From the NCBI GenBank assembly GCA_016219105.1, contig JACRCI010000001.1, positions 1 to 42,217 on the forward strand: a stretch of DNA of 42,217 nucleotides, written 5' to 3'. The notes under the pieces were generated by a model, which worked only from the letters and a program-made list of their open reading frames with translations, did not search any database and was not told the DNA's origin. This DNA is from Deltaproteobacteria bacterium. Its GTDB lineage: Bacteria; Desulfobacterota; GWC2-55-46; DRQE01. This document shows positions 7,581 to 17,410 of this stretch, piece by piece; the stretch's first letter is position 1, and every line of letters begins with the position of its first letter. The position numbers and the translations under genes are program-made.

Positions 7581-8907
7581 ATGCTCGAAGGACTCTCGGA
7601 TAAGTTAAGAGGCATCATAAAGGACATAAAAGGGCACGGCACTCTCAGCGAGTCCAACATAGAGAGCGCCCTGAAGGAGGTGAGGCTCGCCCTTCTTGAG
7701 GCCGACGTGAATTTTGCCGTTGTCAAGGATTTCATCGCGAGGGTCAGGGAAAAAGGCCCTCGGCAAAGATGTCCTTTTAAGCGTAACCCCGGCCCAGCAG
7801 TTCATAAAGGTCGTCAACGCCGAGCTTACCTCGGTGCTCGGGGGAGCGGCCTCGGAGATTACGTTCAAGGGCAGGCCCACGGTCATCATGCTCGCCGGGC
7901 TTCAGGGATCGGGCAAGACAACGACCACGGCCAAGCTCGCGCTGCTTTTGAAAAAAAAGGGCCGGAATCCCTTCATGGTTCCGGCGGACCTCGCGCGTCC
8001 GGCGGCCGTATTGCAGCTTGAAAAGCTCGCCTCGGAGATAAAGGTTGACTCGTTCGGCGTTGAGGGGAGAAAAGACCCGAGGGACATCTGCCGCGAGGCC
8101 CTGCGGGTCGCAAGGATCAAGGGTTACGACACCATGCTCGTTGACACGGCCGGAAGGCTCCATATAGACACGGCCCTGATGGACGAGTTGAAGGACTTGA
8201 AGGAGATACTCTCGCCATCGGAGATACTGCTCGTGGCCGACGCCATGACGGGCCAGGACGCGGTCGCGACCGCCAGAGGCTTTGACTCCGCCGTGGGGCT
8301 TACGGGGGTGATACTTACGAAGCTCGACAGCGACGCCAGAGGCGGGGCCGCGCTCAGCATGCGCATGGCCACGGGCAAGCCGATAAAATTCGCGGGCACC
8401 GGGGAGAAGATAGACTGTCTTGAGGTCTTTTATCCCGACAGGATGGCCGGCAGGATCCTCGACATGGGCGACGTCCTGACCCTCGTTGAGAAGGCGCAGG
8501 AGGCTATAGACGAAAGGAACGCCGTCGAGATAGAAAAGAAGATAAAGAAGGACACGTTCACGCTCGAGGATTTCAGGCTTCAGCTCCAGCAGATAAAACG
8601 CATGGGCTCGCTCGACAGCATACTTTCGATGATACCGGGGTTCAATTCCATTAAAAAGGCCAAAGGCATGGACGTGAACGAAAAGGAGATAACGAAGGTG
8701 GAGGCCATAATAAGCTCCATGACCATGAGGGAGAGGAAAAACCCGGACGTCCTGAACGCGAGCCGCCGCGCGAGGATCGCCCGCGGCAGCGGCGCCACGG
8801 TGCAGGACATAAACAGGCTCATTAAACAGTACGGCCAGATGCGCGAGATGATGAAGAGGTTTAAAAAAGGCGGGATTAAGAGCCTGAAGAATCTCCTGCC
8901 GGTATAA
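7581..8907 (+). CDS. ffh: Signal recognition particle protein Ffh, with an apparent frameshift
   Basis: Ffh binds 4.5S RNA and emerging signal sequences and delivers ribosomes to FtsY. The N domain starts [18 protein letters not shown]; the G domain shows [25 protein letters not shown] and [10 protein letters not shown]; the M domain is methionine-rich with [15 protein letters not shown]. The reading frame breaks at an A5 run (7750-7754): the first 57 residues are in one frame (track ORF 7581-8021) and the rest in another (track ORF 7714-8907). Removing one A restores [18 protein letters not shown], the family sequence. Ffh is essential, so a sequencing or assembly indel is the simplest explanation; polymerase slippage on the A run or a real mutation are alternatives. 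It is first in the ffh-rpsP-rimM-trmD-rplS operon. Confidence 0.88.
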
Positions 8908-15293: not shown

Positions 15294-16670
15294 ATGCGTT
15301 TCTTGCCGTTTAACTTATCATTCATGCGGAGTATCCTTAAATTTTTTCTTTTCGTGGGTCTTTTTATGATAACTACGATTATAATTCCGCCCCAAGCCAC
15401 CGCCGACCTCGGTCATTTCTACTGCACATACGAGCCTTACAACTATTACGGGATATTGCAATACAGGCCGACCATACATAACGATCTATGGAACTGCGCC
15501 GGTTACGCCGGCCACGGAGAGACGCACGTCGGTTATAGAATCATGCCGGCAGTTTACGGGTGCGGCGAAGAACCTATATGCCACAATATCTGCATTTCCC
15601 ACGGTTACGACTGGTGGGAATACGCAAGCCAAACCGAAGCCGCGTCCACTACCAAGAACTGCTACGGCACGTGCAGGCCCGATTTGCAGGAGGTCTGAGA
15701 CAGCATTGACAACAACTGCAACGGTCAGATAGACGAGGGGTGCGCGGTAGCGGCAAAGGTTCTTGAATATTCCGGGGGCAACGGGCAGGAGGGGCGTATA
15801 TGCGAGACCTTGACAGACCTCTTTGAGGTGAAGGTTTTGGAAGGCACTAACCCCAGGAGCGGTATCGGGATTGATTGGGTTGTTAAAGACGTGCCGGCCG
15901 GTTCAACCGGGGCAGGCGTATCTCCGGGAAGCAACGCAACAGATTTTGACGGCATCGCAGGGTCGTATCTTACGCTCGGAGACTATGCCGGGACTTACAC
16001 CGTGGAGGCCGCGTGCGGTGAATGCGATTCCGGAAGCCCGCAGACTTTTACGGCAACCGCAAAATGTCCGGATGTGCCGAGGTATTATCAGACAGATTAC
16101 CCTGATGAGCCGTATGACGGAATATGCAAGGATTATGAGAATCTGACTCCTTCAGGTAAGCCAGGCATTAAAGAGTGCATAAGCTCAAATGATGTACCTT
16201 GGACTATAGCGCAGAAAGGTTGTGCGCTCGCGAGTGCTTCGATGGTACTCAAAAGATACAACCATATGAATCCTCCTGACGGATTAAACTATTTCTTGTC
16301 TGATAATTATATCAGCGGGCTCGGCAGCATTGGATATACCATAAACGGTGCCGTAAAGTGGGATGCTGTCAATTATATTTCCCAGCAGCAGGTAAAATAT
16401 AGAGGCGATCTTAGTTCATACGGAAATTTAAGGAAAGGCATAATAATAGATAAATCGAGCATGGATGAATATCTTAAAAGGTGCATACCCGTCATAGTGC
16501 AGGTATTTAATCCGGACACAAAAAGCGGGCACTGGGTCGTTGTAACAGGAAAAGATGGCGATGATTACCTTATAAATGACCCGGCTTACCCTGAAAGGAC
16601 AAAATTATCGTCTTATGGCGACATATACGCAACCCGTGTTTATGAAAGCGGTGAAGGAGGCTGCCGGTGA
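15294..16670 (+). CDS. Secreted C39-family peptidase-like protein, interrupted by an in-frame TGA
   Basis: Track ORFs 15294-15698 and 15810-16670 are one frame interrupted by a single TGA at 15696-15698. The combined protein has a signal peptide (about residues 10-38, ending ATA), a Cys-rich N-terminal part, the motif EV(TGA)DSIDNNCNGQIDEGC, an Ig-like region, and a C-terminal papain-like C39_2 domain with catalytic candidates Cys in QKGCALASASMVL, His in SGHWVVVTG and Asp in LINDPA. The motif normally reads EVCDGIDNNCNG (MopE-type putative metal-binding motif), so TGA replaces a Cys codon. A nonsense mutation, a base error or recoding as selenocysteine or by readthrough are possible; no convincing SECIS hairpin follows. 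The gene is more AT-rich than its neighbours toward its 3' end, suggesting transfer. Confidence 0.7.
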
Positions 16671-17410
16671 TGAAGGTGAAAATAAGGTTATTGTTGGCGG
16701 TATTTATTTTACAGTCACTATTTATGCTTGTTGATAAATCAAGTTTTGCGAAAGCAGGCGATGTGCAAATAAACTGTGACGGAAAGACCTTTAATGTCCC
16801 TTATGTTGTTATCGATCCATTGGGGCGTAAACTCGGTTATAATCCAATACTGGATCAGCATTACAAAGAGTTTCCAGGGGGGTTTGGAACTGTGGGAATT
16901 AATGATATTGAAGGTGGCGACCAGAGAGATGTACCGGATAGTTATGAATCCTTTTTTACTTTAATGGATGGCAGGTATACAATCGAGGTGATGGGGGAAG
17001 GACTGACAAAATTTGATCTAAGCATTGCCATTTCCGGTATAGAAGGAATAAATTCTTTTGTTTTAAAAGGTGCTACCGACAAAGGTGTAACATCCATCTT
17101 CAAGTTCACCTACAGTTCAGACCCAAGTACACCGGTGGTATTAACCAGAGTCGCCACCCCGCAGAGCCTCCGTCAGGACATAACCCTCTCCCGCAAGGTG
17201 GGCTGGATAGACAACGACGGCATAATGAAGAGTCTTTTAAAAAAGGCGGAGGCCGCCGAGGAGTCCGTAAACAAGGGCAATACAATGGCCGCGGAGAACG
17301 AACTGAAAGCCCTCGTAAACGAGGTGGAGGCGCAGAGGGGAAAACACATAACAGAGGACGCCGCGAAGATCCTGATAGAGGACGCCCGGTATATGATTGA
17401 CAACCTTTAG
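16670..17410 (+). CDS. Exported protein with C-terminal FIMAH-like domain
   Basis: A 246-residue protein with a signal peptide (RLLLAVFILQSLFMLV, about residues 5-27) and a globular middle part that mentions no known catalytic motif. The last 60 residues, from SLLKKAEAAEESVNKGN to AKILIEDARYMID, match the FIMAH pattern, a small helical domain found at the C-termini of secreted proteins. The start ATG at 16670 overlaps the TGA of the protease gene by one base, which implies coupling and a shared role. The first 450 bases are clearly more AT-rich than the flanking operons. Function unknown. Confidence 0.7.
   Translation: MKVKIRLLLAVFILQSLFMLVDKSSFAKAGDVQINCDGKTFNVPYVVIDPLGRKLGYNPILDQHYKEFPGGFGTVGINDIEGGDQRDVPDSYESFFTLMDGRYTIEVMGEGLTKFDLSIAISGIEGINSFVLKGATDKGVTSIFKFTYSSDPSTPVVLTRVATPQSLRQDITLSRKVGWIDNDGIMKSLLKKAEAAEESVNKGNTMAAENELKALVNEVEAQRGKHITEDAAKILIEDARYMIDNL

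What the first reader, a model, noticed from the sequence alone, without database searches (positions are those of the whole stretch)
15696..15698. In-frame TGA at a conserved Cys of a metal-binding-type motif in a secreted protease
Two ORFs in the same frame are split by one TGA, at the Cys of EVCDGIDNNCNG. Signal peptide upstream and C39 domain downstream both look intact, and no other stop or frameshift is seen over 450 codons. It could be a fresh nonsense mutation, or recoding of TGA as selenocysteine, which often replaces Cys in this type of bacterium. The next 40 bases allow only a weak TTGAC/GGTCAG stem, so SECIS support is poor.
Basis: partly seen in the sequence, partly recalled or inferred. 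Interest (0 to 1): 0.6.

Follow-up and report, generated by a model that had tools for sequence, protein, structure and literature searches.

The report
Ordinary stop, not selenocysteine
A stop codon interrupts the gene of a secreted cysteine-protease-like protein at a conserved cysteine, but the bacterium has lost the selenocysteine machinery that its relatives keep (its selenocysteine tRNA gene is a wreck), so this is a plain nonsense change or an assembly error, not a new selenoprotein.

Summary
TGA 15696-15698 lies in frame in a 458-codon frame (15294-16670: signal peptide, Cys-rich module, MopE metal-binding motif, C39-like peptidase), at the first Cys of the MopE motif. The local sequence is EV*DSIDNNCNG, not EV*DGIDNNCNG.

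The selenocysteine reading is rejected. The host assembly (1.87 Mb, 94.9% complete) has no SelA, SelB or SelD over cut-off; seven of the eight other family genomes have all three plus tRNA-Sec. SelA is missing inside an assembled contig, between the genes that flank it in relatives. selC survives at its syntenic place beside lpxK only as a fossil: D-arm deleted, 3' CCA gone. The window lacks the SECIS hairpin that follows the Sec-UGA of selD in relatives.

The same genome carries a near-identical N-terminal module (342 nt, 7 differences) in an RHS-repeat gene, with TGC at this position. The TGA is therefore a derived single-base change in a recently shared module. Real nonsense mutation is slightly favoured over assembly error; error stays plausible because the genome's only ffh gene, essential and on the same contig, carries an apparent frameshift at an A5 run (7750-7754). 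Ordinary; low interest.

The parts
15294..15698 (+). 5' part of the split gene: signal peptide and Cys-rich N-terminal module, ending at the in-frame TGA (134 aa)
   Evidence: 84% aa identical to a module of an intact gene on contig C103 of the same genome
15402..15743 (+). N-terminal module shared with the RHS-repeat gene at G000:C103 (342 nt, 7 differences); similarity stops after the DEGC of the MopE motif
15696..15698 (+). in-frame TGA where the paralogue has TGC, first Cys of the MopE motif
15675..15737 (+). Cu-binding_MopE motif (PF11617), interrupted by the TGA
15699..16670 (+). 3' part: rest of MopE motif, linker/Ig-like region and C39-like cysteine peptidase domain; frame intact
16667..17410 (+). 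downstream FIMAH-domain secreted protein, overlapping the C39 stop; same C39-FIMAH-type order in relatives
7581..8907 (+). ffh (SRP54), the only copy in the genome, split by an apparent one-base shift at AAAAA 7750-7754: sign of a base-level error on this contig

Best explanation
The TGA is an ordinary, unrecoded stop produced by one C-to-A change at a Cys codon. Shown: a 5' module (signal peptide, Cys-rich region, MopE motif) is shared at 98% identity with an RHS-repeat gene of the same genome, the shared stretch ends at the MopE motif, and the other copy has TGC there. Shown: this genome lacks selA, selB and selD over cut-off and keeps only a broken selC, while most family members have the complete set. 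Inferred: the module was copied or converted between the two genes at the motif, and the window copy then took a nonsense change, so the product would be a 134-residue secreted fragment without peptidase. A wrong base in the assembly would look the same. I put about 0.55 on a real recent nonsense mutation and about 0.4 on an assembly or consensus error.
For: SelA: none over cut-off in the own genome, 7 of 9 family genomes positive. SelB: none over cut-off, 7 of 9 positive. SelD: none over cut-off, 7 of 9 positive, each read with one internal TGA. selA absent inside contig C68 between mazG and the DUF3108-type gene, with which it and one further gene are flanked in relatives. selC fossil at C71 beside lpxK, syntenic with relatives: D-stem strand deleted, one anticodon-stem mismatch, GACGG for GCCA; 23 of 30 pairs against 28-30 in relatives. 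The stretch after the TGA folds at -4.8 kcal/mol (42 nt) against about -10 to -15 and a shared hairpin after the Sec-UGA of selD in relatives. TGC in the paralogue and TGC or TGT in the other MopE motifs checked, including those in Sec-using G006 and G001. Absence of a second lesion is no surprise: P about 0.4 at 1% and 0.15 at 2% divergence, with an assumed 5% indels. Frameshift in ffh on the same contig.
Against: The downstream 323 codons are wholly intact and the gene order is kept, as if the protein were still made. The assembly is 94.9% complete, so selB and selD could in principle lie in gaps; the selA deletion and the selC fossil do not depend on that. Reads were not available, so mutation and error cannot be told apart.
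Confidence: 0.94

Rival explanations
1. The TGA is recoded as selenocysteine at the MopE-motif Cys.
For: TGA sits exactly at a conserved Cys; relatives in the same family do use Sec.
Against: SelA, SelB and SelD absent and selC decayed in this genome; no SECIS-like hairpin; Cys codon at the homologous position in Sec-using G006. The position is one Cys of a metal-binding or structural motif, not a known redox active site (inference).
Confidence: 0.01
2. Assembly or consensus error: the true base makes a Cys codon and the gene is intact.
For: The single-copy, essential ffh on the same contig has an apparent one-base shift at an A5 run; the rest of the C39 frame and the gene order are intact; the gene holds a 98%-identical repeat, where assembly of short reads is hardest.
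Against: A substitution is a different error type from a homopolymer indel; the other copy does not carry this base, so the A was not borrowed from it.
Confidence: 0.4
3. The decayed selC, still with a UCA anticodon, acts as an opal suppressor and reads the TGA as Ser or Cys, like the selC* tRNA-Cys and allo-tRNAs described by Mukai et al. 2017 (reviewed in PMC7609411).
For: Anticodon loop CUUCAAA, long variable arm, 8-bp acceptor and G73 are kept.
Against: D-arm lost and no encoded CCA, though all five other tRNAs of this genome printed with their flanks encode it; G73, not the U73 of selC* tRNA-Cys; 5-bp T-stem, not the 4-bp one of those tRNAs; no other own-genome family match listed has an in-frame stop.
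Confidence: 0.02
4. TGA is a real stop and the C39 part is translated on its own from a downstream start such as TTG 15810.
For: A 286-codon open frame with the whole peptidase domain; AGGAGGGG lies upstream.
Against: No signal peptide on such a product; the Shine-Dalgarno-like sequence is about 15 bases from TTG 15810, which is long.
Confidence: 0.08

Closest known systems
Bacterial selenoproteins with SECIS-directed UGA decoding (SelA, SelB, SelC, SelD)
   Same: In-frame TGA at a Cys position; relatives of this bacterium have the trait, SelD itself being a selenoprotein there.
   Different: Machinery lost here, no SECIS, not a known redox active site.
Loss of the whole Sec-decoding trait between sister genomes in Deltaproteobacteria and Clostridia (Zhang et al. 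2006, PMC1794560)
   Same: selA, selB, selD and a working selC are gone while most family members keep them; SelD loss accompanies trait loss.
   Different: Here a recognisable selC fossil remains in its syntenic place.
selC* tRNA-Cys and allo-tRNAs (Mukai et al. 2017, reviewed in PMC7609411)
   Same: tRNA-Sec-like molecule with UCA anticodon.
   Different: G73 instead of U73, 5-bp T-stem, D-arm deleted, no encoded CCA.
Peptidase_C39_2 (PF13529) proteins with a MopE metal-binding motif (PF11617)
   Same: Domain content of the frame when the TGA is read through.
   Different: Frame interrupted at the motif.

Membership tests
Selenoprotein | In-frame TGA with homology on both sides | tested here: met
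Selenoprotein | SelA in the genome | tested here: not met
   Best own hit 12.3 bits, cut-off 267.9; deleted between mazG and the DUF3108-type gene
Selenoprotein | SelB in the genome | tested here: not met
   Best own hit 194 bits in a 400-aa EF-Tu-like frame, cut-off 242
Selenoprotein | SelD in the genome | tested here: not met
   Best own hit 87 bits, cut-off 125
Selenoprotein | Functional tRNA-Sec | tested here: not met
   44.2 bits, gathering score 47; D-arm and CCA lost
Selenoprotein | SECIS hairpin just downstream of the TGA | tested here: not met
Selenoprotein | Sec shown in the protein | not testable with these tools
   needs mass spectrometry
selC* opal-suppressor tRNA-Cys | U73 discriminator and modified 8/4 acceptor/T-stem | tested here: not met
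   G73 and 8/5; definition from PMC7609411
Peptidase_C39_2 | Match over the curated Pfam cut-off | tested here: met
   36.7 bits, cut-off 24; also without the 5' part
Cu-binding_MopE motif | Match over the curated Pfam cut-off | tested here: met
   28 bits, cut-off 27, with Cys read at the TGA; 26.9, just below, in the genome search

The most novel reading that the evidence does not exclude
After loss of SelA, SelB and SelD, the leftover selC-derived tRNA with its UCA anticodon was kept as a weak opal suppressor, and the TGA in the C39 gene is read through by it.
Probability: 0.02. Interest if true: 0.75.

Novelty: already known. Interest (0 to 1): 0.15.

Why it matters
It removes a tempting false selenoprotein candidate and shows why a TGA at a Cys is weak evidence: the machinery must be checked in the same genome, since it can be lost within a family. 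The side result, a syntenic selC fossil together with a clean selA deletion, is a tidy case of recent loss of selenocysteine use.

Tried and rejected
SECIS by folding and by Rfam: nothing. The tRNA-Sec-like hit C71:1342-1426 first looked like a possible suppressor; alignment showed a broken selC. The SelD-like hits with one TGA in 1160-1179 aa frames (G003:C173, G004:C2) looked like further selenoprotein candidates; in G004 the frame is lon running past its own stop into a neighbouring thiL-like gene, so they were dropped (naming by eye). No reads and no strain-level relatives were available; genome contigs gave only Deltaproteobacteria bacterium GWF2_42_12, whose complete C39 copy lacks the 5' module. 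The paper search on the MopE motif gave only MopE itself.

Full report
OBSERVATION. TGA 15696-15698 is in frame with ATG 15294 and with the stop at 16668-16670, and no other stop falls inside the 458 codons. Read through, the frame carries a signal-peptide-like start, a Cys-rich region, a MopE motif (PF11617) and a C39-like peptidase (PF13529). The TGA takes the place of the first Cys of the MopE motif.

THE SAME MODULE ELSEWHERE. The host assembly (G000, 1.87 Mb, 137 contigs, 94.9% complete) has a second copy of the 5' module, in an RHS-repeat gene at C103:3923 (L019), open over at least 1099 codons to the contig end. Window 15402-15743 and its copy differ at 7 of 342 sites: three synonymous, three amino-acid changes, and TGA against TGC. 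The similarity stops right after the DEGC of the MopE motif. The natural reading is copying or gene conversion of a 5' cassette with one end in the motif (inference). The homologous Cys is TGC in G006, and the other MopE motifs checked have TGC or TGT. So TGA is the derived state.

NO SELENOCYSTEINE MACHINERY. SelA gives 12.3 bits against a cut-off of 267.9. SelB gives only hits below cut-off, the best in an EF-Tu-like frame. SelD gives only hits below cut-off. In the family, 7 of 9 genomes have SelA, SelB, SelD and tRNA-Sec over cut-off; the own genome and G005 have none of them. The control works: the relatives' selD genes are found with one internal TGA each, in the context SCAG[U].

The absence is not a gap in the assembly, at least for selA. 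In relatives the order is leuS, lptE, holA, murJ, mazG, then selA, a gene of about 1050 codons, and a DUF3108-type gene. On own contig C68 the order leuS to mazG is the same, and the next gene beyond mazG is the DUF3108-type gene, 530 bp away. Gene names in this paragraph, other than selA, are by eye from the translations.

selC is still visible. In relatives it lies next to lpxK. At the same place in the own genome (C71:1342-1426, minus strand) Infernal finds a tRNA-Sec match of 44.2 bits, under the gathering score of 47. Alignment with six relatives shows the anticodon loop CUUCAAA, acceptor and T-arm kept, but the 5' strand of the D-stem deleted, a mismatch in the anticodon stem, and GACGG in place of GCCA. 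It forms 23 of 30 pairs against 28-30 in the others. This is a fossil.

NO SECIS. The 40-60 nt after the window TGA fold at -4.8 to -9.3 kcal/mol, worse than most shuffles in two of three windows, and Rfam finds nothing. The relatives' selD TGA is followed by a shared hairpin of the type TGATGCAGGTTCTGCATCA, with predicted energies of about -10 to -15 kcal/mol for 42 nt, against -4.8 for the window.

MUTATION OR ERROR. An intact frame downstream does not argue for function. With 4.7% of single-base changes making a stop, and an assumed 5% indels, the chance of no second lesion is about 0.39 at 1% and 0.15 at 2% divergence. An assembly error is a serious rival: ffh at 7581-8907 on this contig, the only ffh in the genome, is split between two frames at AAAAA 7750-7754. 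Since ffh is essential in bacteria (established knowledge), that break is most likely a base-level error in the assembly.

HOW IT MOST LIKELY WORKS. As a stop. If real, the gene gives a secreted fragment of 134 residues without the peptidase, and the FIMAH-domain gene that overlaps its end (16667-17410) may suffer polar effects (inference). C39 followed by a gene of the same kind is also seen in G006, G001 and GWF2_42_12.

COMPARISON. Loss of the whole Sec trait between sister genomes is described for Deltaproteobacteria and Clostridia, together with loss of SelD (PMC1794560), and most bacteria have lost selenium use (PMC5029168). tRNA-Sec-like opal suppressors exist (PMC7609411), but the C71 remnant lacks their defining U73 and 4-bp T-stem.

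VERDICT. Observation confirmed; selenocysteine rejected; ordinary stop by mutation or error. Interest 0.15.

Noticed in passing
window 7581-8907: ffh, the only copy in the genome, is split by an apparent one-base shift at AAAAA 7750-7754.
   Followed up: yes
L049 1342-1426 (G000:C71), minus strand: Decayed selC with UCA anticodon at the syntenic place beside lpxK; D-arm deleted.
   Followed up: yes
L074 1304-1833 (G000:C68): Site of the selA deletion; the neighbouring gene of about 1050 codons that follows selA in relatives is gone as well.
   Followed up: partly
G005 (same family): A second family member without SelA, SelB, SelD and tRNA-Sec over cut-off; whether one loss or two was not tested.
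   Followed up: no
L049 1427-1760 and L053 921-1100: A stretch just upstream of selC looks conserved between the own genome and G003 (open frames reading RK[TS]HPQGACKPPK); possibly an RNA gene, but no Rfam match.
   Followed up: partly
window 15402-15743 and L019 4064-4405: A 5' module shared at 98% identity by two otherwise unrelated secreted-protein genes, ending at the MopE motif: a possible recombination point for cassette exchange.
   Followed up: partly
L085 2-724 and 1517-2335: GWF2_42_12 has two tandem C39 copies (the first cut by the contig end) alternating with FIMAH-type genes; the complete one lacks the 5' module.
   Followed up: no
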